Origin: Bacillus pumilus
GTDB lineage: Bacteria; Bacillota; Bacilli; Bacillales; Bacillaceae
DNA: 64,000 nucleotides
Assembly (NCBI RefSeq): GCF_009937765.1
Contig: NZ_CP047089.1
Location: 3,594,272-3,658,271 of the forward strand
Direction: 5' to 3'
Each line of letters starts with the position of its first letter. The first letter of the stretch is position 1. Both the position numbers and the translations under genes were made by a program. Of this stretch, positions 39,029 to 61,366 are shown piece by piece. Below the pieces are notes generated by a model, which saw only the letters and a program-made list of their open reading frames with translations, did not search any database and was not told the origin of the DNA.

Positions 39029-39261
39029 ACACTTCTTTTTCTTTCGAAAAGAAGTGCCAGATTGTTGACAAAGGGCTAAAATGATCTTTATTTTAGCCCT
39101 TTGTCTTCTTTTCAGCGTGATAGAAAACCTTTGCAGTATAGGAAGGACGAGTACTGGCGCGGAGCGAATTTGACATTCGTGAGCACCAGCACGCAGGACT
39201 GACAACGAATGCGAGGGTTTGTCTACACGCTGACACTTCTTTTTCTTTCAAAAAGAAGTGT
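39029..39261. repeat. 175-bp structured repeat (copy 1, 39058-39232) flanked by direct duplicates of a terminator hairpin
   Basis: The element proper is 39058-39232. It starts CAGATTGTTGACAAAGGG and ends GGGTTTGTCTACACGCTG; its ends are imperfect inverted repeats of about 15 bases. It holds a perfect 16-bp hairpin (GACAAAGGGCTAAAAT and complement) and an inner stem GTACTGG/CCAGCAC. On both sides is the same 29-base hairpin ACACTTCTTTT...AAAAGAAGTG (39029-39057 and 39233-39261, two differences). The distal copy has the T run that would terminate resE. The whole 39.0-39.29 kb gap is this element. Confidence 0.9.
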
Positions 39262-39290
39262 TTCTCATGTAACAAGATTCTTCGTCAGGA

Positions 39291-41072
39291 TTAGACGAGT
39301 TCCTGCTTTTTTCTCGGAATATAAAAGGTAAAATGTGTACCAGTACCCGCTTTGCTATGTGCATGAATGGAGCCTTGATGTGCTTCTACGATGTTCTTCA
39401 CAATTGCAAGACCAAGTCCAGTTCCAGAACGCCCTCTTGTTCTGGCCTTATCCGCTTTATAGAAACGTTCGAAAATAAATGGCAGATCCTCTTCTGGGAT
39501 TCCGCTTCCTGAATCTTTCACATCCATTTTCAAACCGCTTTCCACTGATTGAACCGAGAAGTGAACCTCTCCGCCCTCAGGTGTATGACGAATGGCGTTA
39601 TCAATGAGATTCGTAAACACCTGCTCCATCTTATCCGGATCGAGTACAAAGTGCGGTTCATCCACTTGAATATCATATGTGAGATCAACTTGCTTTTCTT
39701 TTGCTATACCAAGAAACTTGCGGTAAATCTTCTCGGTCAGCTCTTCTGTATCCGTTGATTCGAGATTCAGTGTAATATGACCAGCTTCCATTCTCGCTAG
39801 GTCTAGAAGGTCATTCACAAGACGTCCCATTCGAAGCGATTCGTCGTAAATAATTTGCGCAATCTCTTTCTTTTCCTCTTCTGAGCCTGCGATATCATCT
39901 ACAATCGCCTCACTATACCCTTGCAGCATAGCAATTGGAGTACGAAGTTCATGACTGACATTGGCAATAAAGTCTTTTCTCAGCTTATCAAGTCTTCGTT
40001 CCTCTGTCATATCACGAAGGACTGCAACTGCTCCTCTAACGTCCTGCTGATTATAAAGCGGAGACATAAGAAGAACCCAAGTACGCCCTTGCAGTGTGAC
40101 TTCGATCATTTGCTCTTTTTCCGTGCTGACGGCTGTATGAAACAGTTCTCGTGCTTCTGGAGGCAGTTCATCTCCATCTTTGATCTTCATATTTTGCTCG
40201 TAATACCATGCCTGCAAGAATCGTTCTGCAGGAGGATTCGTCATGAGGATCGTTCCATCAATATTGATGGTGATGACCCCATCGGCCATACTGCTTAATA
40301 TGTTGGATAAATGTTCTTTTTCTTGATTTAAGGCTGTGATATGAAATGTAAGCTGCTTGCCCATTTGATTAAAGGCGATGGCCAGTTCTCCAATTTCGTC
40401 TTGCGTTAATATCGGAATCTTTGTATCAAATTTCCCTTTCGCCAGATCCTGCGCTCCCTCTTTCATCTTTCTAAGAGGATAGGTGACACGCGTTGATAAG
40501 AAGAACGCGAATATAGTGGTTAAAACAATGGCAATACCGGCTGCTAGGAAGATATAACGCGTCGTATGCTTTGTTGTTTGCTCTACGGCGAGTAATGATT
40601 GAGAAAGAAAGACCATGCCTTTTTTGCCGTTTGCCTCAAATGGAACACCGACGACAATTCGTTCATCTTTATGATTGCCTGCATTTGGTTCAGCACGTTT
40701 ACTAATTTTTTTACGATCTTTTAGTGCTTGATTCAGATCACTGTCCGCTTCAATTTGTTTCTTTGTAATCGCAGGTAGCTTCCCGTCTTTTTCAGACGAA
40801 TACCACTCTAGTCCGTCCTCTTGGATAATCGCAATACTCGTCAATTTGTCAGCAAGCTCTGATGTAATCGACCTTGCGAGCGATTGATCGTCATGGCTTT
40901 CTAAAATGACTGCCACTTTATTTGCCATTTGCGTTAAATCTGACTTTGCTTCTTCTACATGGTAATTTTCAATGAACTCTAAAAGAAGCACGGTTAAAAT
41001 AGATAAAACGATTAGGACAAGGAAGAGAATGGTTAACCATAGCTTTCCAACGACACTTTTCCACAGTTTCAT
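39291..41072 (-). CDS. resE: redox-regulation sensor histidine kinase ResE
   Basis: 593 aa. Two membrane helices (about 9-30 and 170-190) enclose an extracytoplasmic sensor. HAMP follows, then PAS (about 255-360), then HisKA with phosphorylated His in [13 protein letters not shown], then HATPase with [16 protein letters not shown] and [15 protein letters not shown]. It phosphorylates ResD under oxygen limitation. The start overlaps the resD stop by 4 bases. Confidence 0.97.
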
Positions 41073-41791
41073 TCAGCGCCGACCTCAAATTTGTACCCGA
41101 CACCCCATACTGTCACGATTTTTTTCGCAGCTTCTGGTGACACTTTATTCAGTTTTTCGCGAAGTCGTTTGACGTGGGTATCGACTGTTCTCAAGTCTCC
41201 AAAGAATTCATACTGCCATACTTCTTTTAACAGCTTCTCTCTGTCATAAACCTTATCAGGTGTTTTCGCAAGGAAATATAAAAGCTCATATTCCTTCGGC
41301 GTGAGACTGACCTCTTTGCCATCGGCTGTTACTCTATGCGCATCGTGGTCAATTGAAAGATGAGAAAACACAAGTACATCTTTTGTTGTTGTCCCAGTAT
41401 TGAGATAAGACGTTTGAGAAGATCTTCTGAGCAATGCCTTCACACGTAAAACAACTTCACGTGGGCTAAAAGGCTTCACGATGTAGTCATCCGTTCCTGC
41501 TTCAAACCCTTGCACGCGGTTGGCTTCTTCTCCTTTTGCCGTCAGCATAATGATTGGAGTCGCTTTTTTGTCTCGAATTTGATTACACACTTCAATCCCA
41601 TCTGTGCCAGGCATCATTAAATCGAGCAAAATGAGGTCATAATCTGATTGGAGTCCTTTTTGAATGGCCTCATCTCCATTTTCCGCTTCATCGATTTCAT
41701 AATTTTCACGTTCTAAATACATTTTTAAAAGGCGGCGAATTCTTGCCTCATCATCTACGACTAATATTTTCGTTTGAGTTGTGTGTTCCAT
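41069..41791 (-). CDS. resD: response regulator ResD
   Basis: 240-aa OmpR-family regulator. Receiver domain with the acidic pocket DDEARIRR and phosphorylated Asp in [13 protein letters not shown]; winged helix from about 135 ([26 protein letters not shown] ...). It activates genes for aerobic and anaerobic respiration, including resABC and fnr. An 87-base spacer separates it from resC, so it may have its own promoter besides readthrough. Confidence 0.97.
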
Positions 41792-41878
41792 TAGACAATC
41801 CTCCTGCTTTCTCCGTTGTTACATTCATTTTAACAAAAAGCCGAATCGATTCATAAAAAGTTGGCCTTTTTCATGTGA

Positions 41879-43057
41879 TTACGCGTATGAATGAAGCCCT
41901 GCAATCACGAGATTGACAAAGATGAGATTAAACATAATGATGGCGAATCCGATGACAGCTAACCAAGCGGACTTTTCGCCATGCCAGCCCCTTGATAAGC
42001 GAAGATGAAGGTAGGCTGCATAAAAGAGAAACGTGATCAATGCCCATACTTCCTTCGGGTCCCAGCCCCAGAACCGAGTCCATGCAATTTGCGCCCAGAT
42101 CATTGCAAAAATGAGCCCGCCTAACGCAAATACAGGGAAACCAATGGAAACGGCTCTATATCCAATTTCATCGACTAAATCTAGGTTCACCTGTTTCACG
42201 AGCGGTTGAAGCAGAGCACTCAGTCGTTTGCGAATGATCAAGCGAATCAGTCCATACAAGATCAGCCCCATGCCGAATGACCATAACACCGTATTGACCT
42301 TTCTACCTGAAAAAACAGGCGGCAAATCAACAAACGGTTCCAAACGATCTTGCGTCACAAGCTCTCCTTTATGAGGTCCAACTAGAGCTGGCAGCTCATA
42401 GACCATCACACTTTCCTCTTTATTTTTATCGACCCAATTAAATTTTGCTTCGTATCCTGTCATTCTAAAGATAGACGTGACAGCGATAAATGCCAGTGTC
42501 ACAACAATCATAAACATGACGAGCTCTAAACCAAATGTCTTCTTCCCTGGCTTTGTTTGATCGACATGTTTTAATAAAAAGATGACGCCTGCCACAAAGC
42601 TAATCGCTAAAATAGCTTGCCCTAGTGCTGCTGTTGTCACGTGAATATAAAGCCAATTACTTTGTAATGAAGGAATTAGCGGTGATATATCAGATGGGAA
42701 CATGCTTGCATAGGCAATAATCAATAAAGCAATTGGAAGTGTAAATAAACCAAGTACAGACACTTGATACACAAAATATAAAATAATGAATGCGAGCACA
42801 AGCATCATGCCAAAAGCCGTTGTGAATTCAAACAAATTGCTGACTGGTGCATGACCAGACGCCACCCACCTTGAAATAAAGTAGCCAAATTGACTTAAAA
42901 AGCCAATGATGGTGAGCGTAATGCCGATAAGTGCCGCCTTATTCCTACGCGGTCCATCAACTTTCTTTTTTCCTTTAATGGCACCGCCAAAAAAAGGAAC
43001 TGCCGCTAAATACAATAGAAAAGCTGCAAATAACAGGTTTTCACTGACTGCTGCCAT
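41879..43057 (-). CDS. resC: cytochrome c biogenesis protein ResC (CcsA/CcsB-type)
   Basis: 392 aa with about eight membrane segments. The heme-handling tryptophan-rich signature [27 protein letters not shown] lies near residue 325, followed by [10 protein letters not shown]. With ResB it forms the system II heme export and cytochrome c ligation complex. The start overlaps the resB stop by 17 bases. Confidence 0.96.
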
Positions 43058-44720
43058 CTAATCCTTCCCCCTTGCTTTTGCTGATACTTGTTGTATCAGG
43101 CAGTTCTTTTTGATCAACTGGCTGTTTGATGCCACTGTCACTTAGGATCACGCCAAGATCAGACTTTAAGCCAAACCAGTTTTTGTTTGTATGTCCTGCC
43201 ACGAATACTTTTCCATCCCTTGCAGACAGCCAAATTCTTCTATGCTGCCAATACATCCCCTGCACGACACCAATCATGAAGATGATTCCGCCTACGATGA
43301 GCACCCCAAGAGTTAAATCTTTTCTCACCGTCAATCCCGTGACGTTTTTCGTTTCCACTCGATCAAACTTCATTTTATATAGGTTATTATCAGAGCCCTC
43401 TACTGTCTCTTGAATCGCCACAAAGCTTTTTTCACCTTTAGGCTTTTCAGGAGAAACCATTTCAAACACGAAAGCAGGATTATTCGGATTCCTTGTCTTC
43501 GTACTCGGCGTTCCATCATCGTCAAAATAAAAATCAGGGAGATAGCTCATCACTTTAACTTTGTAACCGCTACCAAGATCATATTCTGACTTAGGCTCCA
43601 GCAGATTAATCTTCACTGTTCCGAAAGATTTTTCTGTATCTTTACGAATCAGCTGAAAGACCATTTGATCGAGTTCATTTTGTTTAAAATCCACTTGATA
43701 TAATGAGAAATGATCAAACTTGAGCGGTTCGTTCACTTTGATATTGTGTTCTGATACCTGCTTCAGCTTGGGCTTTTCACCAAACACAACTTCCCCTTCA
43801 CGTTTGTATAAAGTGGCATCGGTTTTATAACTTTTCACTACTTGACCGTCGCCAGCTCTTTCAATCGCATTCTCAAACACTTCTTTTTCATTTCCAGTTT
43901 CATAGCGGTCAATTGAAAACGCATTATTTTTCAAAAAATATTGACCATCTGTGCCTGGAATTGGGGCAGTTTCACCCTCTCTCACCCACAGCGTTTCATC
44001 CACATACATGCCTGGGACAAACCGGAGCATTGATCCAATGAGAAAGATGATTAATCCAATGTGATTGACGTAAGGGCCCCAGCGTGAGAAGCGGCCTTTT
44101 TCCGCTAAAATATGTCCGTTTTCTTCTCGTACCCGGTAACGCTTTTGCTTCATTGCTTTCTTGATGCCTTCATATGTATGCTCATCTAACATTTTGTCTG
44201 TCTCACTGAACAGACGCTGTCTTCTCATAAAGCCTTCTTTTTTGATAATCCCTTGATTTTTAAGTGCTCGATAAAGAGGGATAACCCGGTCGAGACTGCA
44301 AATGACAAGGGAGATTCCGATGGATGCAACTAAAGCTAAAAACCACCAAGAATTATAAAGATCATGGAATCCAAGTGTGTAGTACAGCTTACCAAACGAT
44401 CCATATTGCTCTTCATAATAGGTGGAAGCAGATGCACCTGGTGGAATAAATCGCTCCTGCGGAAAAATTGTTCCTAATGAGGAAGCAAGTAGTGTAATGA
44501 CAATCAGCCACACACCCACCTTAACGGAAGAAAAAAAGTTCCATACTTTATCAACAATCGTTTTGTTGTATGTTTGCGAGCGTCTCGCACTGCCGTCATA
44601 TCTCATATCAAGCAGCTTTGAAGAGTTTTTCTCTTTAGCTGCAATGGGATTTCCGCAGGATTCACATAAAACAGTACCGATTGGATTAATATGTCCACAC
44701 TCGCATTTTACCTCTTTCAT
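43041..44720 (-). CDS. resB: cytochrome c biogenesis protein ResB
   Basis: 559 aa. N-terminal zinc ribbon [20 protein letters not shown], then three membrane helices in the first third, a large extracytoplasmic domain (about 240-480) and a last helix ([22 protein letters not shown]). It is the ResB partner of ResC in system II cytochrome c assembly. It is slightly longer than in B. subtilis (542 aa). The resA stop abuts its start. Confidence 0.96.
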
Positions 44721-44721
44721 T

Positions 44722-45252
44722 CTAAGACCCCTTTGGTTTAATCAAATTCATATATTCATAGACATTACGTTCTGTCATGGTTCCCTTTATGACTTTGATT
44801 ACCTTGCCTTCAGGATTAATTAAAAATGTGGTTGGCAGCGGCGTTATATCATATGCCTCTGTCACTTGACGATCTTTGTCCATGGCAACAGGAAAATTCA
44901 CGCCATAGGACTCCATAAAATTCTTCACGGCAATATTGGACTCTGCAACATTGACTGCAACAATTTCCACACCGCGATCCTTGAACACTTCATATTGATT
45001 TGCCATGTAAGGGAATTCTTGTTTACATGGACCACACCAGGTCCCCCAAAAATTAAGAAAGACGCCTTTGCCTTTTAAGTCCTTTAGTTCAATCCGTTCC
45101 CCATCTACAGATTGAAGGACAAAGTTTGGCGCAATAGATCCTTCTTTGACCCGCTCCTGTTTGGCAAATACAGAGTTATACATGGTATAACATAGTGCAG
45201 CAAGCATCACGAGGAGAATGCCCGTCCGTATGAAAAACCGTCTTTTTTTCAT
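44722..45252 (-). CDS. resA: thiol-disulfide oxidoreductase ResA
   Basis: 176 aa from ATG 45252 ([11 protein letters not shown]). A membrane anchor at residues 8-28 holds an extracytoplasmic thioredoxin domain with active site WCGPC in [16 protein letters not shown]; the cis-Pro motif is [12 protein letters not shown]. It reduces apocytochrome c so that ResBC can attach heme. The longer frame from 45321 lacks homology before the anchor. First gene of resABC(DE). Confidence 0.96.
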
Positions 45253-45342
45253 CTGAAGTACCCCTTCCCCATAGACATTCAGGTAAATTATAGCATTCTC
45301 CTTCTTTTGATGCTTCTTCATTTTTTGAAGTTTATGTGAAAA

Positions 45343-46077
45343 TTAAAAAGCGCTTTTTCCGTGATCCGCAATCGCTCTCAGACGTTTCACTTCATGTGGA
45401 GACAATTCTCTGCGGTCTCCTGGTCTCATACCTTCAATATGAAGGAACGCATAGTGCTCTCTTTTTAGCTTTAACACATCATGACCGATCGCTTCAAACA
45501 TGCGGCGCACTTGTCTGTTTCTGCCTTCATGAATGGTTAATTGAACAATACAAGTTTGCTTTCGTTTATCAATCGAAAGCATTTTGGTACGGGCAGGTGC
45601 CGTTTTTTTATGATCTAACATAATCCCTTTTTCTAGCTTTCTAAGCAATTCCTTTGATGGGATTCCTTTTAGCTTCGCTGCATATGTTTTATCAATTTCG
45701 TATTTTGGATGCATGAGCTTATGGGCAAATTCCCCGTCATTTGTAATTAAAATCAAACCGCTCGTATCATAATCTAAACGGCCGATTGGATAAAGACGCT
45801 GCGGAACATCATCAAAGAAATCTGTGACCACCTTACGTCCTTTATCATCTTCGGCAGCTGAAATGACGCCGCGCGGTTTATAAAGCATAAAGTAAACCGG
45901 TTCTTCTCTTTCAAGCTTTAATCCGTTGACTTCAATTTTATCTGAAGAGCCCACTTTTACTCCGAGCTCAGTCACTGTTTGACCATTAACGGTAACTCGT
46001 CCTTCTTTAATTAATTCTTCTGCCTTTCGCCTTGAAGCGACGCCGGCATGTGCAATTACTTTCTGTAAACGTTCCAT
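45343..46077 (-). CDS. rluB: 23S rRNA pseudouridine 2633 synthase RluB
   Basis: 244 aa from ATG 46077, equal to B. subtilis RluB, with GAGGTGAAAG in front. S4 domain at residues 1-60 (MERLQKVIAHAGVASRRKAEELI); catalytic domain with the Asp motif GRLDYDTSGLILITNDG and the family end NRQVRRMFEAIGHDVLKL. It lies between spmB and resA as in B. subtilis. Confidence 0.97.
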   Translation of the reverse strand: MERLQKVIAHAGVASRRKAEELIKEGRVTVNGQTVTELGVKVGSSDKIEVNGLKLEREEPVYFMLYKPRGVISAAEDDKGRKVVTDFFDDVPQRLYPIGRLDYDTSGLILITNDGEFAHKLMHPKYEIDKTYAAKLKGIPSKELLRKLEKGIMLDHKKTAPARTKMLSIDKRKQTCIVQLTIHEGRNRQVRRMFEAIGHDVLKLKREHYAFLHIEGMRPGDRRELSPHEVKRLRAIADHGKSAF

Positions 46078-46214
46078 TTTGTCTTTCACCTCATGTACTA
46101 TCTTACTTGCTTGAATTAAAACAAACAAGCATTCGTGGAAAAATAAGCGATTCGTCTGTTTAATTTCAGCTAAATAGCCATTTCCCATCCATTGAAAGAC
46201 AAAAAAGCGCCTCT

Positions 46215-46751
46215 TTAGGCGCCGCTAAATAACAAACTGACGATGATGACAGATGCAATGATGCCAATGAGGTCCGCTAACAGACCTACTTTCAGCGCAT
46301 CTCCCATTTTTTTAATACCGACTGCCCCAAAATAGACCGTTAAAATGTAGAGAGTGGTGTCAGTTGACCCTTGCATGACAGCTGCGAGTTGTCCGATAAA
46401 AGAATCTGGTCCATATGTCGCAATGAGGTCTGATGTCATCCCGAGTGCAGCTGTGCCAGATATCGGACGAATAAACGCAAGTGGCACTACTTCTGCCGGG
46501 AAGCCGATTGCTGTAAACACGGGTTTTAACAGTCCCATGACAAAGTCAAGTGCACCAGACGCGCGGAATATCGTAATGGCCACGAGCATGCCGACTAAAT
46601 AAGGAATGATTGAAAAGGCAATTTGAATACCCTCTTTCCCGCCCTCGACAAATGTTTCATAGGTCGGTACCTTCTTAATGGTTCCCGCAATTAAAATGCC
46701 TGCGATGATCAATGGGATCAAAGCAAGTGAAAGCCAGTTAATAAATGACAC
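46215..46751 (-). CDS. spmB: spore maturation protein SpmB
   Basis: 178 aa from GTG 46751, the exact B. subtilis length, 4 bases after the spmA stop with GGGGGTGATC as ribosome site. The frame is open further upstream, but that would overlap spmA. Four or five membrane segments of the gate/nucleoside-recognition family (PLAFIRPISGTAALGM). With SpmA it is needed for full dehydration of the spore core. Confidence 0.95.
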   Translation of the reverse strand: MSFINWLSLALIPLIIAGILIAGTIKKVPTYETFVEGGKEGIQIAFSIIPYLVGMLVAITIFRASGALDFVMGLLKPVFTAIGFPAEVVPLAFIRPISGTAALGMTSDLIATYGPDSFIGQLAAVMQGSTDTTLYILTVYFGAVGIKKMGDALKVGLLADLIGIIASVIIVSLLFSGA

Positions 46752-46755
46752 GAGA

Positions 46756-47343
46756 TCACCCCCGCCTGCTTCTGCGATAGTGGAAATAGCGATCAATGAG
46801 AATGGCACCAATGCCTGAAATGAGTGTCGCCAAAATGGTTGGGCCCACAATGTCTGTTGGCTGATCTGCACCATAGGTCATTCTAATTGCAATGACAGTT
46901 GTTGGCACGAGTGTGATAGAGGATGTGTTGACCGCTAAAAATGTAATCATGGACCGGCTTGCTTCATTTTTCCCGCCGTTTAATGCTTTCATCTGCTCCA
47001 TTGCCTTAATCCCAAGGGGTGTCGCGGCATTCCCGAGACCAAAGAAATTCGCCATGAGATTGGACAAAATATATCCCATCGCAGGATGATTAGGCGGAAT
47101 ATCCGGAAATAGCTTTGAAATAAAGGGACGGCACAATTTACTAAAGAAATTTAACAAACCTGCCTCTTCTGCAATCTTCATCAGCCCAAGCCAAAAAACA
47201 AGGACACTAATCAGACCAATTGAAATGGTCACCGCTTCCTTTGATCCTTTAAATACAGCTTCGTTTACTTCCTCCATCGTTCCGTTGAACATCGCATACA
47301 CAAGACCGATGACAGTGAGGAATACCCAAATTAGATTGACCAT
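46756..47343 (-). CDS. spmA: spore maturation protein SpmA
   Basis: 195 aa with about five membrane segments, again of the gate-domain family ([19 protein letters not shown]). The start overlaps the dacB stop by 13 bases. dacB-spmA-spmB is the known sigma-E-controlled operon for spore cortex and core maturation. Confidence 0.95.
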
Positions 47344-53069: not shown

Positions 53070-53720
53070 CTAGAATCCGTGCTCTTTTAAAAATGATGGG
53101 GTCAATCGGGATGGCTGCTTTTCGCCTTTTTCTTTTGTTAAGAAGCGATAAATATATTTACCGATCATGTCACACTCTATATTCACAATCTCCCCCATAG
53201 ATTTAGTCGGGAAAATAGTTCCTTCAAGCGTATGAGGAATAATAGAGACTGTGACGTGTGAATCTCGCAAATCGAAAATAGTTAAGCTGACACCATCTAT
53301 TGCGATCGAACCCTTTTGTGTGAGCATATCTGTGAGGGTCTTGTCCATCTCTAAATCATAGTAAATGGCATTACTTTTCTTTTCTATTCGGGTAATGACT
53401 GCCGTCCCGTCAACATGGCCTGAGACAAAATGACCGCCGAATCGCCCATTCGAGGACATAGCCCGCTCTAAATTCACTGGACTGCCTGATGTCAGCTGAT
53501 CCAGTGATGTCGCTTTGACTGTCTCTGGCATCACATCTGCTGCGAACTGTGCTTTTGTAAAGCTTGTGACAGTAAGACATACACCATTAATCGCAATACT
53601 ATCTCCAAGGTGAACATCTTCTAGCACATGGCTACACTGAATGACAATTTCCATGGCATCTGCTGACTTTTTACTTAATGATTGAACGGTGCCTACTTCT
53701 TCAATTATCCCCGTAAACAT
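53070..53720 (-). CDS. ribE: riboflavin synthase alpha chain
   Basis: 216 aa, made of two similar lumazine-binding barrels (1-~95 and ~96-195). [12 protein letters not shown] is the standard start and [12 protein letters not shown] the second-barrel signature. It dismutates two lumazines to riboflavin and the pyrimidine precursor. It is the first gene after the FMN riboswitch here; ribD, which normally precedes it, is missing. Confidence 0.97.
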
Positions 53721-53759
53721 GTGATCCTCCCTTTCTTTTCATTTGTATTTCTCACTTTA

Positions 53760-53925
53760 TAAAAAAGCGATGTTAGGGACATGTGATCGATTGAACACCT
53801 TCGTCGCTTTTTATGGTCCATACAAGGTAGATGAGGGATCACCTAATAAACACTGCATGCCAGTCTATTCACTACATGTACATACAGAAAGCCCCGGAAA
53901 AATTCCGGGGCTGTGGCTTTTTTGC
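53760..53925 (-). terminator. hairpins between the FMN riboswitch and ribE, candidate attenuator
   Basis: On the minus strand there is first AGCCCCGGAA/TTCCGGGGCT (about 53891-53915), with only a short T run on this strand. Second is a larger stem AAAAAGCGA/TCGCTTTTTT (about 53761-53809) with a good T tract ending 35 bases before ribE. Either could be the riboswitch-controlled terminator. No RibD remnant can be read in this 250-base stretch. Confidence 0.55.
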
Positions 53926-53974
53926 ATCAGAAATAAAACTATGATTAACAAATATTTTTCGTTCATAGCTTTCT

Positions 53975-54117
53975 TTATCCTTCTCCCATCCAGACTTTCA
54001 CTGTCGGCTTCAGCTTTTCACTGAATCAACCGTTAATAAAATTAACGGGTCACGGGCTGTAAAGCATTTGCTTTATTACCGTCGGTCGGGATTTTCACCC
54101 TGCCCCGAAGGATACAA
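53975..54117 (-). promoter_or_regulatory. FMN riboswitch (RFN element)
   Basis: On the minus strand P1 arms TATCCTTC/GAAGGATA close the element. Inside, in order, are CGGGGCAGGGTGAAAATCCC, GACCGACGGTAAT, AGCCCGTGACCC, a variable hairpin GTTAATTTTATTAAC, then GAAGCCGACAGTGAAAGTC and TGGATGGGAGAAGG. All conserved RFN blocks are present, so FMN sensing is probably intact although the downstream operon has lost two activities. Confidence 0.96.
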
Positions 54118-54143
54118 TCGATATTTAGCTGTCCTTAGGGGTT

Positions 54144-54172
54144 ATTATAGCGATCCTCGTTGTCAAATGCAA
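54144..54172 (-). promoter_or_regulatory. sigma-A promoter of the rib operon
   Basis: Minus strand -35 TTGCAT (54167-54172), 17 bases, -10 TATAAT (54144-54149), about 27 bases before the riboswitch. Confidence 0.75.
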
Positions 54173-54220
54173 CAATCAAGATTTCTCACAAAAAAGCCTC
54201 CTTATAGGAAAGGAGACTTG

Positions 54221-54565
54221 TTAATTAACGACTTTTACTACTTTTATAAGACCATCTATTCTTTTTTCATTACTAAAGTAGGCTTTAATACGATCACCTT
54301 TCTTCAAGTCAGCCACATCATCTTCAAATTTCTTCCCACTAAAAATGATTTTTGTGCCGTTTTTTGCTTGACCGTAATACTCATCACCGTCAATTTTCGT
54401 AATGGTATATTCATAGATGGTATAATCTTTATCATTATTTGTTAAGCTTTCACCAATGGCTGTTGGCACATCTTCAATTTTCATGCCATTCATGTATAAA
54501 TATCCTGCGCCTAAACAAAGCAGTAAAACAAATAAGATGGCCATTTTTAATTTAATTTTCCCCAT
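54221..54565 (-). CDS. small exported protein, YpuD-like
   Basis: 114 aa from ATG 54565 (GGAGGT site). An N-terminal membrane anchor or signal (residues 8-25, MAILFVLLLCLGAGYLY) is followed by a small beta-rich outer domain (DKDYTIYEYTITKIDGDEYYG ... FSGKKFEDDVADLKKGDRIKAYF). It occupies the place of ypuD upstream of the rib operon. I only tentatively match it to YpuD; a DUF1093/OB-like fold is possible. Function unknown. Confidence 0.6.
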   Translation of the reverse strand: MGKIKLKMAILFVLLLCLGAGYLYMNGMKIEDVPTAIGESLTNNDKDYTIYEYTITKIDGDEYYGQAKNGTKIIFSGKKFEDDVADLKKGDRIKAYFSNEKRIDGLIKVVKVVN

Positions 54566-54789
54566 GTTTAGAACCTCCATCATCTGCACTTCGCCTATTT
54601 GTATGTTTTATTCCTTCTTTTGATGAAATAAAACCAAAAAAGCTGATTTCCATTAATGGTTACTTATATAACGATTGAGATGGACCTTTGGTTCCACCTT
54701 TTCATCATTACATATGATACGAATATGCGTTCTTTGTTAAGGGGGTCTCTTTTCTCTTTATCAGTTAGCAAGGCGTACATCATTGATGA

Positions 54790-55023
54790 TCATCTTTTTT
54801 CGAGTGCGAATAAATCTTCCTCTAACAATTGCGATCTCTGAACAGCGATGTTCCGGCTATCACGAACCCCTTGATTATAATAATAGCTTCCAAGGTTTTT
54901 TGTGATAAATTCTAGTATATTGATGGCTGCTAATTCACCAATTTCTTCTTCTCGTTCTTCGGCAAAGAAACGCTGAATGGCAATCATCATTTGATTTTTT
55001 TCTTCTTTTGTTAAAGGTTTCAA
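54790..55023 (-). CDS. DUF2164 family protein
   Basis: 77 aa starting at TTG 55023 behind GGAG. It contains the DUF2164 pattern: AIQRFFAEEREEEIGELAAINILEF, then FITKNLGSYYYNQGVRDSR. It is a soluble, helical protein found in many bacteria as a single small gene. Function unknown. It has no clear operon partner here. Confidence 0.8.
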   Translation of the reverse strand: MKPLTKEEKNQMMIAIQRFFAEEREEEIGELAAINILEFITKNLGSYYYNQGVRDSRNIAVQRSQLLEEDLFALEKR

Positions 55024-55151
55024 ATTATCTCCTGCTTTCTTTCAGCATGATCACGCTTTTTTGATTTGTACTGGCAATGTGGTGACACCCACAAATGCGA
55101 ATGTTTGTTCTCTTATCATATCACAATATCGGGTTTTGTGCATCACTGTCC

Positions 55152-55196
55152 TAAAAGAAAAAGCGTATTTTGACATTGAGTTCAAAATACGCTATC
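55152..55196 (-). terminator. terminator of the TetR gene
   Basis: Stem AGCGTATTTTGA/TCAAAATACGCT on the minus strand followed by a T-rich run. Confidence 0.88.
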
Positions 55197-55235
55197 GCTC
55201 TTATTGAAGGAGGATATCATAGTATGTTGGCCATT

Positions 55236-55817
55236 TTATTTTAATATGGAAAGTATCGTCGCTACAGAATGATCTACAAATGAACGCTCTGGACGAGATT
55301 TCATGAGGACGGTCAGTCCAATAAAAGAAACGACCAGTGTTTGTGCTAAAGCTTTCGCATTCAGGCTGCTTTTGAGCTCACCTAAATGAATACCTTGAAC
55401 AATTCTTTCTTCAAATATGACGGAAAGATACATCTGATGCTCTCTTGTAAGAATTTCAAATTTCTCTTCGTGTGGCGCAAGTTCCACTATTGTATTGATA
55501 CAAAAACATCCTTTACTCGGACCCTCTCTATATTCCTCTTCTACTAAATCTGCAAATAATGCATGAAATGCTTCTTTGACAGAAAGATTGTTTTGAAGTT
55601 TTGTTCGAATATGGGCAGCATGATGCTTTGTATATTTTCGTAATGCGGCCTCAAATAATTCCTCTTTATCTCCAAACGCTGAGTATAAACTTGGTCGCTG
55701 TATTCCCATTTTTTCAGTCAAATCGCTTAATGTAGTAGCCCTATACCCCTTTTCCCAAAAAAGCATCATTGCCTCATCCAACGCTTTTTCCTTGTCAAAT
55801 TCCCGTTGTCGAACCAT
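55236..55817 (-). CDS. TetR/AcrR-family transcriptional repressor
   Basis: 193 aa. N-terminal helix-turn-helix at residues about 10-55 (TTLSDLTEKMGIQRPSLYSAFGDKEELF); the C-terminal ligand domain has a Cys pair CFCIN in the SKGCFCINTIVEL turn, as in the YxaF/LmrA-like group. It is divergent from the MFS transporter gene with operator-like palindromes between, so it probably represses that transporter. Confidence 0.85.
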   Translation of the reverse strand: MVRQREFDKEKALDEAMMLFWEKGYRATTLSDLTEKMGIQRPSLYSAFGDKEELFEAALRKYTKHHAAHIRTKLQNNLSVKEAFHALFADLVEEEYREGPSKGCFCINTIVELAPHEEKFEILTREHQMYLSVIFEERIVQGIHLGELKSSLNAKALAQTLVVSFIGLTVLMKSRPERSFVDHSVATILSILK

Positions 55818-55887
55818 CAGTAATTCCTCATTTCAACAATAAAATTTTTCACAAAGTCAGCCATCTATATATTAATCTTTATTTTAA

Positions 55888-56027
55888 TTACCAATCGGTA
55901 CATTATCATTTTATTTTATCGAATTACTATTGTCAAATTGCCTTCCTCTTTCAAGATAAAAGTATTGACTTTAAAATGTTTTGATGGTTATTCTAAACAA
56001 GAATCATAATATACTGACCAGTATATT
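55888..56027. promoter_or_regulatory. divergent promoter/operator region for TetR and MFS genes
   Basis: A sigma-A-like promoter for the MFS gene has TTGACT at 55965-55970 and TATTCT at 55989-55994 (18-base spacer). Just downstream, 56008-56027 is an interrupted perfect palindrome AATATACTG-AC-CAGTATATT, likely the TetR operator. A weaker TACCAATCGGTA near 55891 lies before the TetR gene. Confidence 0.65.
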
Positions 56028-56052
56028 ATACCTTTCAGTACAAAAGGAGACG

Positions 56053-57318
56053 ATGAAATGCATGGCGAAAGAAAAAAACACTTCCATTGAACATCTTGAG
56101 CTGGAAACAGCTCATTTACAAAACAAACCGAAACAAGCAATGACTCGCTATATGGCTCTGCTGTTTGCGTCAGCCTGCGGAATGGCAGTTGCAAACATAT
56201 ACTTTGCACAACCATTATTAGACTCCCTCGCATCCGAGTTTGGTATCACCTATTCATCTATAGGCATGGTCATTACGATCACTCAGCTTTGTTATGCACT
56301 GGGACTGCTACTAATTGTACCACTTGGTGATTTGTTCAACCAAAGGCGGCTCATCATGGCTCAAATGCTTGTTTCCATATTATCTCTCATTCTAGTCGGC
56401 ATCGCCCCTACTGCCACCGTCCTGTTCATAGGGCTAGCTGCCGTCGGTATGCTTGCTGTGGTCACTCAGGTACTCGTAGCGTTCGCCGCGACATGGGCTG
56501 CTCCTGAAGAACGAGGCCGTATCGTGGGTTTGGTTCAAAGTGGCATTGTGATTGGTATTCTCCTCGCACGAACGTTCGCTGGAGTATTAACCGATCTCGC
56601 CGGCTGGAGGTCAGTCTATCTCGTGTCTGCCGTTATGATGCTCATCATAACAGCCGTGTTATACCGTTATCTCCCGCGCACTGACAGCATGAGAGCGTCA
56701 ATATCCTATATAAGGCTGCTCGCTTCAATGTTTACATTGTTCAGACAAGAACGAATTCTTCGTATCCGAGGTATACTGGGTTTTCTGATCTTTATCGTGT
56801 TTGGTACGTTGTGGACTTCGCTCGTGCTACCTCTCAGTAGCTCGCCATACAATCTTTCACATACGGCGATTGGTGCCTTTGGTCTTGCCGGCGTTGCAGG
56901 AGCATTAGGCGCTGCCCGGGCTGGAAGGCTTGCTGATCGTGGCTTAGGCCAATTAACAACTTGTATCGCCCTTGTCCTATTATTCGTTTCATGGTTTTTT
57001 ATTTTTTTCACTGAATATTCACTTATTTTATTAATCATCGGTATTATCATTCTTGATCTATCTGTGCAAGCTGTTCATGTGACCAACCAAAGTATGATTT
57101 TCACAGTGCTGCCTGAGGCGAGAAGCCGGCTGACTGCTGCTTATATGATTTTTTACTCCATCGGCAGTGCGACTGGTTCCATTGCTTCCACTAGCATATA
57201 TGCAAACACTGGCTGGAGCGGAGTATGTTTATTTGGCGCCTCTGTTAGCGCCATTGCCTTTTTATATTGGTTCATCACCTATCGCTTCACGAAACAAATA
57301 ACCGTCAAATCAGATTGA
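56053..57318 (+). CDS. MFS transporter, TetR-controlled
   Basis: About 421 aa with 12 membrane segments. The loop 2-3 motif reads GDLFNQRRLIMAQM (classic G-D-x-x-x-R-R), and the motif C-like GIVIGILLARTFAGVLTDLAGWR lies in segment 5, which is typical of drug/H+ antiporters. An AAAGGAG site lies at 56043-56049; ATG 56053 is close to it and ATG 56062 far from it, so the start is unsettled. Probably an efflux pump; substrate unknown. It resembles the AraJ/YdhP class. Confidence 0.8.
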   Translation: MKCMAKEKNTSIEHLELETAHLQNKPKQAMTRYMALLFASACGMAVANIYFAQPLLDSLASEFGITYSSIGMVITITQLCYALGLLLIVPLGDLFNQRRLIMAQMLVSILSLILVGIAPTATVLFIGLAAVGMLAVVTQVLVAFAATWAAPEERGRIVGLVQSGIVIGILLARTFAGVLTDLAGWRSVYLVSAVMMLIITAVLYRYLPRTDSMRASISYIRLLASMFTLFRQERILRIRGILGFLIFIVFGTLWTSLVLPLSSSPYNLSHTAIGAFGLAGVAGALGAARAGRLADRGLGQLTTCIALVLLFVSWFFIFFTEYSLILLIIGIIILDLSVQAVHVTNQSMIFTVLPEARSRLTAAYMIFYSIGSATGSIASTSIYANTGWSGVCLFGASVSAIAFLYWFITYRFTKQITVKSD

Positions 57319-57325
57319 TAATAAA

Positions 57326-57352
57326 AAAACACCGCGTTTAAGCGGTGTTTTG
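57326..57352. terminator. bidirectional terminator between the MFS gene and ppiB
   Basis: Stem AACACCGC/GCGGTGTT with A and T runs on the two sides. Confidence 0.85.
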
Positions 57353-57361
57353 CATTGAGCA

Positions 57362-57799
57362 TTAAGCATCGAAAACTTCGACTTTTTCCATTCCTTGGCC
57401 TTGTTCCATATCTAGAACAGCCTCGATTCCAGATGTTACTTTGCCAAAAACAGTGTGAACACCGTTTAAGTGTGGCTGCGGGTCATGTACGATAAAGAAT
57501 TGGCTACCGCCCGTGTCTTTACCAGCATGCGCCATTGATAATGAACCTCTTTCGTGTTGATGTGGATTTCCTTCTGTTTCACATTTAATTGTGTAACCAG
57601 GGCCACCAGTTCCATTACCGTTTGGATCGCCGCCTTGGCTTACGAAACCAGGGATTACGCGGTGAAATTTCAATCCATCGTAGAAGCCTTCATTCGCTAA
57701 TTTTTCAAAGTTTGCTACTGTACCTGGAGCAGCCTCTGGGTATAGTTCAAACTCAAGTTTCTTACCATTCGTTAGTTGTATGTATCCTTTTTTCGCCAT
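57362..57799 (-). CDS. ppiB: peptidyl-prolyl cis-trans isomerase B (cyclophilin)
   Basis: 145 aa from ATG 57799 with AAAGGAG 9 bases upstream. Cyclophilin signatures [19 protein letters not shown] and [23 protein letters not shown] are complete, including the catalytic Arg and Phe. Cytoplasmic, no signal peptide. In B. subtilis it also neighbours ypuA, with which it is divergent. Confidence 0.97.
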
Positions 57800-58006
57800 T
57801 TTCACATTCTCCTTTCAGGTTAAACAACGCTCATTATAGCACATTTTTGGTCATGTTAAACATCCCCTGCTCTTTGATTGTGATTTACCTCTTTTCTTAG
57901 GATTGATACAATGGAAGAGCTTAATTCTTTTTTCCTATTAAATTGGTGACAGAATAAGCAACATGTCATTATTTTTTGGAAAAGGAAAACATCTTAAAAA
58001 GAAAAT

Positions 58007-58033
58007 TGAAACGTCGAATCGATTTGTTACGTC
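58007..58033 (+). promoter_or_regulatory. ECF (sigma-M-type) promoter of ypuA
   Basis: -35 TGAAAC (58007-58012), 17 bases, -10 CGTC (58030-58033), about 87 bases before ypuA. B. subtilis ypuA is a known SigM target. The 300-base ppiB-ypuA gap holds this promoter and the ppiB promoter; I see no gene. Confidence 0.82.
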
Positions 58034-58119
58034 TATATGATGGAGTACATCACTTTACGTGTACTCAAAAGATGCGTTTCTCTTGAAAGAGGAACCCTTT
58101 CGACTTGAAGGAGGTCAAC

Positions 58120-59004
58120 ATGTTTAAAAAATCAATGCTTGGTATGATGGCAGCGCTCCTTTTCCTTATTGGTGCGCCAAAAGTCAGCTTAGCGGATGCA
58201 GCTGTCGGCGATGTCATCGTCACACTTGGGCAAGACTTAACTCCGGCTGATCGCCAGAAGGTGCTTGACGAGTTGAATCCACCTGAAAATGCGACAAAAA
58301 TTGAAGTAACCAATAAAGAAGAGCATGAATATTTAGGAAAGTATATCCCTCGTTCTTCTATCGGGACGAGAGCGTTATCATCATCATCTATCACCATAGA
58401 AAAATCAGGTACTGGTCTGACTGTGGATACACATAACATCAAGACCATAACAGATGAGATGTATTTAAATGCTTTAATGACAGCCGGTGTCAAGGATGCC
58501 AAAGTTGTTGTGACTGCACCGTTTGAGGTTTCTGGTACAGCCGCACTGACGGGTTTATTAAAAGCCTATGAAGTGTCTAGCGACAAAGCTATCCCAGAAG
58601 ATGTGAAGCAGGTAGCAAACGAAGAGCTGGTGACAACGTCTAAATTGGGTGACTCCATCGGGAAAGACAATGCGTCTGCCCTTATCGCAAAAATCAAGGA
58701 TGACATTGCGAAAAACGGTGTCCCTAAAACAACAAAAGAAGTGGAAGAAAAAGTGGATCAAGCTGCTTCTGATTTAAACTTAAATCTAACGCAAGAACAA
58801 AAGGATCAGCTTATTTCTCTGTTCGATAAAATGAAGAACATCAATATCGATTGGAACCAAGTAGGATCTCAAATCGATAAAGCAAAAGACAAGATTACGA
58901 AATTCATAGAATCAGATGAAGGGAAAAACCTCCTTCAAAAGATTTGGGATTTCTTTGTCTCCATTTGGAACGCGATCGTCTCTGTATTTACTGGAGGAAA
59001 ATAA
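58120..59004 (+). CDS. ypuA: exported DUF1002 protein YpuA
   Basis: 294 aa from ATG 58120, with AAGGAGG in front. Signal peptide 1-~25 (ending KVSLADA). The DUF1002 domain spans about 25-260 (AVGDVIVTLGQDLTPADRQKVLDEL, SGTGLTVDTHNIKTITDEMYLNALMTAG), and the C-terminus ends with a hydrophobic segment IWDFFVSIWNAIVSVF. It is part of the envelope-stress regulon in B. subtilis; molecular role unknown. Confidence 0.92.
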   Translation: MFKKSMLGMMAALLFLIGAPKVSLADAAVGDVIVTLGQDLTPADRQKVLDELNPPENATKIEVTNKEEHEYLGKYIPRSSIGTRALSSSSITIEKSGTGLTVDTHNIKTITDEMYLNALMTAGVKDAKVVVTAPFEVSGTAALTGLLKAYEVSSDKAIPEDVKQVANEELVTTSKLGDSIGKDNASALIAKIKDDIAKNGVPKTTKEVEEKVDQAASDLNLNLTQEQKDQLISLFDKMKNINIDWNQVGSQIDKAKDKITKFIESDEGKNLLQKIWDFFVSIWNAIVSVFTGGK

Positions 59005-59028
59005 ATCAACATAAAAAGCTGCCTGTAT

Positions 59029-59154
59029 AGGAACTGACCCCCGTTTTTGAGACAGGGATCAAAACACCTTTATAAAACAGCCAGTTGCCGAAACTCTTTT
59101 GGTGACTGGTTGTTTAATTTCAATTGAATTCGGATATTGTTATAATAATCAATA
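59029..59154 (-). mobile_element. IS3-family remnant, copy B: 3' end of transposase plus terminal repeat
   Basis: Identical over 126 bases to 36237-36362, same strand. It encodes the same last 27 transposase residues (IDYYNNIRIQLKLNN...). Outside the 126 bases, both flanks differ completely. It marks the right boundary of the displaced res/rib block. Confidence 0.9.
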
Positions 59155-59156
59155 AC

Positions 59157-59284
59157 TCTCCGAGGTATGCAGGATGCATATCACACATGCGTTGCTACAC
59201 GATGTAGCGAACTTAGCATGTGATCATTTCCTGCCTCGTCAGCGTTTGACTGACTACCTATGAAACATCATAGGATTTTTTTAT
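59157..59284. repeat. long imperfect hairpin, CAGCGT, and + strand terminator after the IS remnant
   Basis: An interrupted stem pairs CGAGG...GCAGGA...ATCACACATGC with GCATGTGAT...TCCTGCCTCG (about 59160-59240) and has an inner hairpin GCTAC/GTAGC. CAGCGT follows, as in the other hairpin repeats. CCTATGA/TCATAGG with T7 (about 59257-59284) is a terminator. The rest of 59285-59347 has the TTGTTTAGTTTTCAAAGATC string often found beside Bacillus rRNA/tRNA genes. No protein gene is seen in 59155-59347. Confidence 0.5.
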
Positions 59285-59347
59285 AAAAACTCGAATTAAC
59301 AGGTACGTTTTGTCTTGTTTAGTTTTCAAAGATCATATTTCAAAAAA

Positions 59348-59421
59348 TGGAGCGGGTGATGAGAATCGAACTCACGACATCAGCTTGGAAGGCTGAGGTT
59401 TTACCACTAAACTACACCCGC
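59348..59421 (-). tRNA. tRNA-Gly (anticodon TCC)
   Basis: Full cloverleaf: acceptor GCGGGTG/CACCCGC, anticodon loop CTTCCAA with TCC, T loop TTCGATTC, and an encoded CCA end. 74 bases including CCA. Confidence 0.97.
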
Positions 59422-59432
59422 GTGGTTTGTAT

Positions 59433-59509
59433 TGGCGCGCCCGAGAGGAGTCGAACCCCTAACCTTTTGATCCGTAGTCAAACGCTCTATCCAATTGAGC
59501 TACGGGCGC
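59433..59509 (-). tRNA. tRNA-Arg (anticodon ACG)
   Basis: Full cloverleaf: acceptor GCGCCCG/CGGGCGC, anticodon loop with ACG (read as ICG), T loop TTCGACTC, and encoded CCA. 77 bases. First gene of the two-tRNA unit; the Gly tRNA follows 11 bases on. Confidence 0.97.
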
Positions 59510-59528
59510 TTAATCAGGCGACTTAATT

Positions 59529-59557
59529 ATCTTAACATATCGTTTTTATCAAGTCAA
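59529..59557 (-). promoter_or_regulatory. promoter of the tRNA pair
   Basis: Minus strand -35 TTGACT (59552-59557), 17 bases, -10 TAAGAT (59529-59534), 20 bases before tRNA-Arg. The remaining 59558-59878 has the gltP leader, with an inverted repeat TTGGAAAATT/AATTTTCCAA near 59830-59855; I see no gene there. Confidence 0.8.
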
Positions 59558-59878
59558 CATCTTTTTAAAATTTGTTTGCCGCATGTGTTTGAATGTCTTT
59601 GTTTCAAATACGTCATCAGCGACGAATAAAAATATACCATGGATCATACAAAAGGGTCAATACATTTTTCTAAAAAAGTTTCATGTTTTTTAAGAAGTTG
59701 TTTTTTCTTAGATAAATAGAGATGCGATAGCCCTATTTTCTTCTCTTCCTTCATAATTCTAATGATTCTTAAATAAAATCTTTCTAAATCCAAAAGAGGA
59801 CAAAACATGGTCACATAGAATTTTTATTTATTGGAAAATTCTTAAAATTTTCCAAGCATTTAAAGGGGGTAGGAGATG

Positions 59879-61129
59879 ATGAAAAAGTTCGTCGCTTTTC
59901 AAATCATGATCGCTTTGGTGATAGGAGCTCTTATCGGACATTTCTTTCCTGACTTCGGGATGGCCCTCAGGCCAATCGGAGATGGGTTCATCCGATTGAT
60001 TAAAATGATCGTTGTTCCTATCGTTTTCTCTACCATTGTCATTGGTGCAGCTGGCAGTGGTGGCATGAAGAAGATGGGCAGCCTTGGATTAAAGACGATC
60101 ATTTGGTTTGAAGTCATCACAACCATCGTTCTAGGAATTGGGCTATTGCTGGCTAATGTTCTAAAGCCTGGCGTTGGCCTCGACTTCTCTAAATTAGCTA
60201 AGAAAGATATTGGTGAATTAGATGGCTATACGCAGAAAGTCGTGGACTTTAAACAAATGGTACTCGATATCATTCCAACGAATATTGTGGATGTCATGGC
60301 ACAAAATGATTTACTTGCTGTCATTTTCTTCGCCATATTATTTGGTGTAGCCGCAAGCGGCATCGGTAAGGCATCCGCTCCTGTTCTCACCTTCTTTGAA
60401 TCAGTGGCACAAATTATGTTTAAGCTAACGCAGATGGTCATGGTGACAGCACCTATTGGAGTGCTTGCATTAATGGCTGCTTCCGTTGGTCAATATGGCA
60501 TTGTGTTATTAATCCCAATGATGAAGCTTGTAGGGACTGTATTTTTAGGATTATTCATCATTCTCTTTGCTTTGTTCCCTCTAGTCGCACTGATCTTCCG
60601 TTTTAACTACTTCGAAGTGTTAAAAATGATATGGGATTTGTTCTTGGTTGCCTTTTCTACTACAAGTACAGAAACTGTCCTTCCTCAGCTTATGTCACGA
60701 ATGGAGAAATACGGCTGTCCGAAAAGAATTGTCTCCTTTGTCATTCCATCTGGTCTTTCTCTCAATTGTGATGGGTCCAGTTTATATTTATCGGTTTCCT
60801 GTGTGTTCCTTGCACAAGCGTTTGGTGTCGACATGAGTTTGTCACAGCAGCTTTTGATGATGCTTGTTCTTGTATTAACGAGTAAAGGGATTGCAGCGGT
60901 GCCATCCGGTTCACTCGTCGTTCTTTTGGCAACCGCACATGCAGTTGGTCTCCCAGCAGAAGGCGTTGCCATTATTGCCGGTGTCGATCGAATTATGGAT
61001 ATGGCACGAACAGGTGTGAATGTTCCAGGTCATGCCGTTGCGTGTATTGTCGTATCAAAATGGGAGAAAGTATTCCGCGAATCTGCTTGGGAAGTTCCAA
61101 AAGCAGGTGAGGAAACAAAAGGGATGTAA
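59879..61129 (+). CDS. gltP: proton/glutamate symporter GltP
   Basis: 416 aa from ATG 59879, chosen because AAAGGGGGT lies 8 bases ahead and [13 protein letters not shown] matches B. subtilis GltP. DAACS family (SLC1): eight membrane segments and two re-entrant loops with [13 protein letters not shown] (HP1) and [14 protein letters not shown] (HP2); the substrate motif [14 protein letters not shown] lies in segment 8. It imports glutamate and aspartate with protons. Confidence 0.95.
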
Positions 61130-61137
61130 TGTTATAT

Positions 61138-61366
61138 GAAGGAAAGGGATTCCCCCTTTCCTTTCAGATTGTTGACAAAGGGCTAAAATGATCTTGATTT
61201 TAGCCCTTTGTCTTCTTTTCAGCGTGATAGAAAACCTTTGCAGTCTAGGAAGGACGAGCATCGGAGCGGAGCGAATTGAACATTCGTGAGCACCGAAGCG
61301 CAGATCTGACACCGAATGCGAGGGTTTGTCTACACGCTGGAAGGAAAGGGATTCCCCCTTTCCTTT
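61138..61366. repeat. 175-bp structured repeat (copy 2, 61165-61339) flanked by direct duplicates of a terminator hairpin
   Basis: The element proper 61165-61339 has the same length and ends as the copy at 39058-39232, and about 90% identity. It is flanked by perfect 27-base direct repeats (61138-61164 and 61340-61366). Each is the complete hairpin AAGGAAAGGG/CCCTTTCCTT that ends gltP and the convergent S66 gene. The flank differs from that of copy 1. The inner stem is GCATCGG (61258-61264) with CCGAAGC (61293-61299). Confidence 0.92.

What the first reader, a model, noticed from the sequence alone, without database searches (positions are those of the whole stretch)
39029..61366. 175-bp structured repeat that sits inside duplicated transcription terminators, with compensatory base changes
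Seen: two copies, 39058-39232 and 61165-61339, are each exactly 175 bp and 22 kb apart. Their ends are imperfect inverted repeats (CAGATTGTTGACAAA at one end; complement of the other end CAGCGTGTAGACAAA). Copy 2 is bracketed by a perfect 27-bp direct repeat, copy 1 by a 29-bp repeat with two differences. The two brackets are unrelated in sequence, but each is a complete local terminator hairpin. The inner stem is GCATCGG/CCGAAGC in copy 2 and GTACTGG/CCAGCAC in copy 1: three of the paired positions changed on both arms so that pairing is kept. Inference: a small mobile element that recognises terminator hairpins and duplicates them on insertion, with a structure (RNA or folded DNA) under selection. 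I know of no named family that fits, though Bacillus genomes carry uncharacterised ~190-bp intergenic repeats.
Basis: partly seen in the sequence, partly recalled or inferred. Interest (0 to 1): 0.75.

Follow-up and report, generated by a model that had tools for sequence, protein, structure and literature searches.

The report
Mobile repeat that duplicates terminator hairpins
The 175-bp repeat is a small parasitic piece of bacterial DNA, probably moved by the enzyme of a larger jumping element, that inserts into the hairpins that stop transcription and leaves a copy of the hairpin on each side.

Summary
The two window copies belong to a family with at least 44 full-length copies in this Bacillus genome; 38 of 44 genomes of the genus match, five of them only weakly. 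Its 15-bp ends resemble those of autonomous ~1.5-kb IS1182-family insertion sequences in the same genome, so it is best read as a MITE mobilised by such an IS. MITE and IS behave alike: the target is an intrinsic terminator and the whole hairpin is duplicated. Of 99 MITE copies with both flanks, 81 have a flush repeat; 77 of the 81 contain a strong hairpin, and in 75 of these the repeat is centred within 0.5 bp of the hairpin dyad. Orthologous empty sites carry one hairpin. The internal structure covaries beyond a phylogenetic null. Preferred mechanism (inferred): strand transfer at the two feet of an extruded cruciform. That pathway was drawn as a possibility for IS1272 (PMC5678879), which itself replaces or deletes hairpins. 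The family also fits the 190-bp repeats of B. subtilis (Kunst 1997, recalled). Hairpin targeting by this IS family is published; I found no report of whole-hairpin duplication or of this MITE in ten searches of an incomplete library.

The parts
39058..39232 (+). MITE copy 1 (175 bp)
   Evidence: 91.4% identical to copy 2
61165..61339 (+). MITE copy 2 (175 bp)
39029..39057 (.). left copy of duplicated terminator hairpin, copy 1 (29 bp)
   Evidence: single hairpin in 16 of 16 relatives examined
39233..39261 (.). right copy of duplicated terminator hairpin, copy 1 (two differences)
61138..61164 (.). left copy of duplicated terminator hairpin, copy 2 (27 bp, perfect)
61340..61366 (.). right copy of duplicated terminator hairpin, copy 2
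39058..39072 (+). left terminal inverted repeat CAGATTGTTGACAAA, copy 1
39218..39232 (-). right terminal inverted repeat CAGCGTGTAGACAAA, copy 1
61165..61179 (+). left terminal inverted repeat, copy 2
61325..61339 (-). right terminal inverted repeat, copy 2
39067..39105 (+). left subterminal hairpin, 16 bp stem, copy 1
61174..61212 (+). left subterminal hairpin, 16 bp stem, copy 2
39113..39232 (+). right foldback ending in the right terminal repeat, with inner stem GTACTGG/CCAGCAC (39151-39157 / 39186-39192)
   Evidence: self-complement of positions 56-81 with 150-175 in copy 2
61220..61339 (+). right foldback ending in the right terminal repeat, with inner stem GCATCGG/CCGAAGC (61258-61264 / 61293-61299)
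36364..36488 (+). 125-bp remnant of the right end of the IS1182-family IS, 95% identical
36489..36510 (.). terminator-like hairpin abutting the IS remnant; the same hairpin abuts an IS left end at G000:C1:2437338

Best explanation
The 175-bp repeat is a non-autonomous MITE moved in trans by an IS1182-family DDE transposase. SHOWN: 15-bp ends like those of autonomous IS copies in the genome, the same kind of target (intrinsic-terminator hairpins), the same whole-hairpin duplication, single-hairpin empty sites at the two window loci. INFERRED: mobilisation in trans. INFERRED, main mechanistic step: the target palindrome is extruded as a cruciform, and the two 3' ends of the element are joined at the feet of the two opposed hairpins. 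Those two phosphates are about 19-34 nt apart in linear DNA but neighbours at the four-way junction. Gap filling then copies the hairpin on both sides, so the stem rather than a fixed stagger sets the length of the duplication. ALSO INFERRED: the outer flank of each daughter hairpin is unchanged, so a T-run still follows the last hairpin in each direction of transcription; termination would be largely kept and the insertion nearly harmless, which would permit high copy number.
For: Copies: at least 44 full-length in this genome; 38 of 44 genomes of the genus match at E<=0.001, own genome included. Flank repeats: 33 of 40 above the maximum of 1,560 mispaired controls; 81 of 99 flush across genomes, 81 distinct sequences, against 7 of 9,702 mispaired controls at the same cut-off, and those seven join near-identical hairpins from four pairs of loci. 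Geometry: centre of the repeat on the hairpin dyad in 56 of 77 and within 0.5 bp in 75, or 74-75 of 77 when the search stretch is lopsided or longer. In 56 of 57 near-perfect cases the left edge lies 1-5 bp outside the outermost G-C pair; left and right offsets are equal in 42 and within 1 bp in 55 of 57. All 31 flush targets of this genome have at least 5 A of 9 before or 5 T of 9 after the hairpin. Empty sites: copy 1 locus one hairpin in 16 of 16 relatives examined; copy 2 locus one hairpin in 10 of 15, and one relative carries the element there in opposite orientation between its own hairpin copies. Mobiliser: two intact IS of 1503-1504 bp, ends CAGCTTGTAGACAAA / CAGACCGTAGACAAA, perfect 22-bp hairpin repeats; transposase 477.8 bits against the IS1182 cut-off of 270. 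In all, 29 of 39 testable IS loci, 11 of them from other families of the class, show such ends and a 15-31 bp hairpin-containing repeat. Context: of 40 copies, 23 between convergent, 16 between tandem, 0 between divergent reading frames, 1 undetermined.
Against: No transposition was observed. 27 of 44 genomes of the genus, including the one that looks like B. subtilis 168, have no transposase match at E<=1e-60, so many copies may be fossils. The MITE interior matches neither IS tested; only the ends do. 18 of 99 copies have no flush repeat; about ten of these keep similar hairpins on both sides with indels, the rest are eroded, nested, one-sided or unlike (by eye). 4 of 81 flush repeats hold no strong hairpin. 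10 of 39 IS loci gave no convincing ends or repeat. Length of the repeat correlates only moderately with full hairpin span (r 0.42, 0.49), better with the span to the outermost G-C pair (0.65), so sequence or protein geometry may also matter. Cruciform extrusion is untested.
Confidence: 0.85

Rival explanations
1. It is a structured RNA gene or 3'UTR module, spread and kept because the RNA does something; mobility is secondary or ancient.
For: Standard pairs in 99.0% of cells against 88.7% in the phylogenetic null (maximum 93.3% of 200), and 24 double substitutions keeping pairing against a null mean of 1.0, maximum 4. Copies of this genome are still 89% identical to one from the B. subtilis-like genome. 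In the left hairpin, changes to G-T outnumber those to C-A by 11 to 2, p 0.02.
Against: No Rfam family reaches its gathering score at the copies; at copy 1 the best of five sub-threshold matches has 30.9 of 110 bits. Over all pairs the G-T/C-A asymmetry is weak (26 against 13, p 0.05) and in the right foldback not significant (15 against 11, p 0.56). Presence is polymorphic between close relatives. Tandem-gene copies lie in both orientations (7 and 9).
Confidence: 0.12
2. The paired changes come from hairpin-templated correction (quasipalindrome mutation), not selection, so the covariation is a by-product of palindromic DNA.
For: The two daughters of one target hairpin sometimes differ at both partners of a pair with pairing kept (L015, L020): 2 double against 28 single differences over 786 pairs.
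Against: Doubles are a small minority in the daughters, while structure-keeping doubles are common in the element (24); the right foldback is long-range and imperfect, a poor template.
Confidence: 0.2
3. Duplex-reading transposase: a dimer binds the palindrome as duplex and cuts with a flexible stagger around the dyad, with no cruciform.
For: Repeat lengths vary less than hairpin spans (sd 2.9 against 5.15).
Against: A variable 19-34 bp stagger is unusual for DDE enzymes (recalled); edges follow the outermost G-C pair symmetrically; edge positions show only A and T tracts as common sequence.
Confidence: 0.25
4. The element sits between pre-existing tandem terminators, or one terminator was converted to match the other.
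For: None found.
Against: Single hairpins at orthologous empty sites of both window loci; 81 distinct locus-specific repeats.
Confidence: 0.01

Closest known systems
IS1272 / TnSha1 (IS1182 family), staphylococci (PMC4923244 passages; PMC5678879 abstract, sections 22 and 29 part 1, passages)
   Same: Same transposase family; targets are hairpins, often terminators, without primary sequence preference; repeated use of one target in both orientations.
   Different: IS1272 replaces or partly deletes the hairpin and makes no target duplication. Here the whole hairpin is duplicated. PMC5678879 drew hairpin duplication as a possible pathway (Fig 13 legend, b).
IS1182 family in general (NCBIfam NF033551; ISEfa7 is a named member met)
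   Same: Transposase passes the family cut-off; proteins annotated ISEfa7 are 58% identical. IS1182 is among families listed as over-represented between convergent genes (PMC9208149, passage).
   Different: Other members are listed with what read as 4-bp direct repeats: ISPse1 (PMC3281130) and ISCaa15 (PMC3196728), table rows seen as passages.
190-bp repeats of B. subtilis 168 (Kunst et al. 1997, recalled; paper not held)
   Same: The 4,215,606-bp genome G035 (length recalled as that of strain 168) has about 11 places on both sides of coordinate zero, minus strand at 0.32-0.74 Mb and plus strand at 3.1-4.1 Mb, with 737371-737545 the exception, and some with an internal insert; this fits what I recall of the paper.
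   Different: As recalled, they were proposed as a structural RNA; I recall no mobility or terminator duplication.
Bacterial MITEs generally, e.g. pneumococcal BOX, RUP, SPRITE (PMC10969869, passages)
   Same: Small, repeated, intergenic, structured elements.
   Different: Insertion inside, and duplication of, whole terminators is not in the passages seen.

Membership tests
MITE | short, with terminal inverted repeats | tested here: met
   175 bp, imperfect 15-bp ends
MITE | target-site duplication and empty orthologous sites | tested here: met
MITE | ends shared with an autonomous element in the same genome | tested here: met
   similar, not identical; interior not shared with the two IS tested
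MITE | mobilised in trans by that transposase | not testable with these tools
   needs an assay
IS1182 family (the mobiliser) | transposase scores above the family cut-off | tested here: met
   477.8 against 270 bits; DDE_Tnp_1_6 and DUF772 domains
IS1182 family (the mobiliser) | hairpin targets (reported for some members) | tested here: met
IS1272 mode of insertion | loss of the target hairpin, no duplication | tested here: not met
   hairpin duplicated
known Rfam RNA family | score above gathering cut-off | tested here: not met
   both copies; copy 1
190-bp repeat of B. subtilis 168 | same sequence family at the reported positions | tested here: inconclusive
   positions fit from memory; the paper could not be read

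The most novel reading that the evidence does not exclude
A clade of DDE transposases chooses its target by DNA shape, an extruded terminator cruciform, and lets the hairpin set the size of the duplication. The same enzymes move structured MITEs that have colonised terminators across much of the genus Bacillus, including the puzzling 190-bp repeats of the model strain.
Probability: 0.6. Interest if true: 0.72.

Novelty: new variant of a known kind. Interest (0 to 1): 0.62.

Why it matters
It gives a likely mechanism and owner to an abundant repeat of Bacillus genomes, and turns a drawn pathway (hairpin duplication through a cruciform) into something visible in dozens of natural insertions and testable with designed hairpins. 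If right, the element would report which terminators extrude as cruciforms in living cells. Terminators would also be a safe harbour: insertion duplicates the stop signal instead of destroying it.

Tried and rejected
Rejected: pre-existing tandem terminators. No phage record matches; four plasmid records do, three under non-Bacillus names, not followed up. Rfam gave nothing above gathering. No PDB chain matches the transposase by sequence; I ran no structure prediction. A pairwise covariation scan with APC correction had little power: one pair at E 0.0 and one at 0.55, where the listing stopped. I then used whole-structure measures, so that test was chosen after seeing the first. The strand test was first run on all pairs (31 against 13), then restricted (26 against 13), and is inconclusive.

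Literature: ten searches. Among the titles and abstract starts listed I saw no paper on this repeat or showing whole-hairpin duplication by IS1182 relatives; lists were cut at 20 in several calls and most listed papers were not opened. Two IS reviews and Kunst 1997 are not held, and ISfinder/TnPedia were not available, so absence from print is not shown.

Rows dropped: 2 of 101 copies for cut flanks; 15 of 98 distinct copies left out of the alignment for altered ends; from the geometry test 22 of 99, being 18 without a flush repeat and 4 with hairpin score under 9; from the stricter one 42 of 99. In one search, 47 IS loci were given, 8 were too short, and 10 of the other 39 gave no convincing ends or repeat (L136, L230, L232, L234, L239, L241, L244, L249, L252, L254). 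In L239, L241 and L249 each side has a different hairpin, as expected if copies recombined; the others were not explained.

Full report
THE OBSERVATION. Both copies are as described: 175 bp, 39058-39232 and 61165-61339, 91.4% identical, with ends CAGATTGTTGACAAA and CAGCGTGTAGACAAA. Copy 2 lies between perfect 27-bp repeats and copy 1 between 29-bp repeats with two differences. The stem changes are real and keep pairing.

FAMILY SIZE. In the window's genome (3,774,609 bp, one contig) one search scored only 40 of 81 first-look candidates. Of these 40 places, 38 are full-length and two lack the left end (L033, L038). One search added six full-length copies, so at least 44, plus fragments. The end pattern occurs 90 times against one control hit. 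In the genus, 38 of 44 genomes match at E<=0.001, own genome included; five of the 38 have only one or two weak matches. With a B. subtilis-type query at E<=1e-6, 4 of 299 genomes of the class match, all in this genus (1 of 118 genera; only two candidates per genome were scored).

TARGET. In this genome 33 of 40 copies have flank repeats scoring above the maximum of 1,560 mispaired flanks. In 31 of 40 the repeat is flush with CAG...CTG; by eye, L004, L011, L031 and L037 have both hairpins but with small indels. Across the loci fetched up to there were 101 copies; 99 had both flanks and 81 of these have a flush repeat (35 of 44 in this genome, 46 of 55 elsewhere), against 7 of 9,702 mispaired flanks. 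Those seven join near-identical hairpins from four pairs of loci, which may be shared insertions or the same terminator in two genomes. Of the 18 without, about ten still show similar hairpins on both sides with indels or loop changes; the rest are eroded, nested, one-sided or unlike (by eye).

GEOMETRY. Rebuilding the target from its two flanks, 77 of the 81 distinct flush targets hold a strong hairpin. The centre of the repeat equals the dyad in 56 of 77 and is within 0.5 bp in 75. Searching lopsided or longer stretches gives 74 or 75 of 77. In 57 near-perfect cases the left edge lies 1-5 bp outside the outermost G-C pair in 56, with equal offset on the right in 42 and within 1 bp in 55. Bases at the edges are mostly A on the left and T on the right, as terminators have. 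Correlation of repeat length is 0.65 with the span to the outermost G-C pair and 0.49 with the full hairpin span, so the relation is not tight. By gene context, 23 of 40 copies lie between convergent reading frames, 16 between tandem ones, 0 between divergent ones, 1 undetermined (ORFs of 100 codons or more, found mechanically).

EMPTY SITES. All 44 genomes have the copy 1 flank. I examined 16 relatives, the closest by score, and all show a single hairpin and no element. The copy 2 flank is in 34 of 44 genomes; I examined 15 relatives. Ten have one hairpin and no element. One (G018) has the element in the opposite orientation between two copies of its own version of the hairpin, one end eroded. 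Three (G020, G021, G022) carry eroded remnants. One (G009) has an unrelated hairpin and no element (all read by eye). So this terminator was hit at least twice, unless the element inverted in place.

MOBILISER. Some end-pattern hits belonged to longer elements. Two are intact IS of 1503 and 1504 bp with transposase ORFs, each flanked by perfect 22-bp hairpin repeats. The transposase is IS1182 family. A second IS group, 46% identical in protein, behaves the same way. At class level 38 of 299 genomes in 26 of 118 genera match at E<=1e-80. Of 47 IS loci given to, 8 were too short; 29 of the other 39 (18 in this genus, 11 in other families) show CAG-type ends and a repeat of 15-31 bp that contains a hairpin, weak in a few; 10 do not. 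By eye the MITE ends match the first group (GACAAA) better than the second (GAGAAA). The MITE interior does not match either IS tested.

STRUCTURE. On 83 distinct copies the consensus is a left hairpin of 16 pairs and a right foldback of 36 pairs that includes the right end. Standard pairs fill 99.0% of cells against 88.7% in 200 phylogenetic simulations (maximum 93.3%), and 24 branches carry paired double changes against a mean of 1.0 and a maximum of 4. The consensus was derived from the same sequences, which favours the observed values. Changes to G-T outnumber those to C-A by 26 to 13 (p 0.05): 11 to 2 in the left hairpin (p 0.02), 15 to 11 in the right foldback (p 0.56). RNA versus single-stranded DNA is not settled. 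Hairpin-templated correction is a live alternative for some changes (L015, L020).

LITERATURE. PMC4923244 (passages) and PMC5678879 (abstract, section 22, first part of section 29, passages) show IS1272 choosing hairpins and deleting or replacing them; the legend of Fig 13 in the latter draws whole-hairpin duplication from a cruciform as a possibility. PMC4923244 also says that a 2015 review reports palindromic targets for some IS1182 members. ISPse1 and ISCaa15 appear with what read as 4-bp repeats (PMC3281130, PMC3196728, passages). PMC9208149 (passage) lists IS1182 among families over-represented between convergent genes. In PMC10969869 the words Bacillus and IS1182 were not found in the main text. 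From memory, Kunst et al. 1997 described ten 190-bp repeats around the B. subtilis origin with compensatory changes and proposed a structural RNA. G035, of the length I recall for strain 168, has copies at fitting places. Of its five full-length copies listed, three have flush hairpin repeats and two have altered hairpins on both sides.

VERDICT. The finding is real and mostly explained: a MITE family with a probable IS1182-type mobiliser. New, as far as I could see, are the regular duplication of complete terminator hairpins with dyad symmetry and the link of MITE to IS. The cruciform step is inference.

Noticed in passing
window 36364-36510: A 125-bp remnant of the right end of the IS1182-family IS abuts a hairpin; an IS left end with the same hairpin is at G000:C1:2437338, about 1.2 Mb away, as if one copy had been split by a rearrangement.
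   Followed up: partly
L042, L045, L055, L057, L061, L062: Six copies of the IS left end break within a few bases of the same point (by eye). In L042 and L061 it joins the IS right end (a 251-bp deletion derivative, measured in L042); in L045 and L057 (L095, L096) it joins what I read as the 3' end of 23S rRNA, followed by a 5S rRNA gene and two tRNAs. Unexplained.
   Followed up: partly
L097:3000-3066: A Bacillaceae-1 RNA (RF01690) lies beside one truncated IS end; the window has another at 59166-59232 near two tRNAs.
   Followed up: no
L109, L110 (genome G035); perhaps L107, L111: Copies in the B. subtilis-like genome carry an internal insert with its own hairpin (by eye).
   Followed up: no
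L076, L239, L241, L249: Elements with unlike hairpins on the two sides, as if copies at different terminators had recombined.
   Followed up: no
window 53974-54116: FMN riboswitch, minus strand.
   Followed up: no
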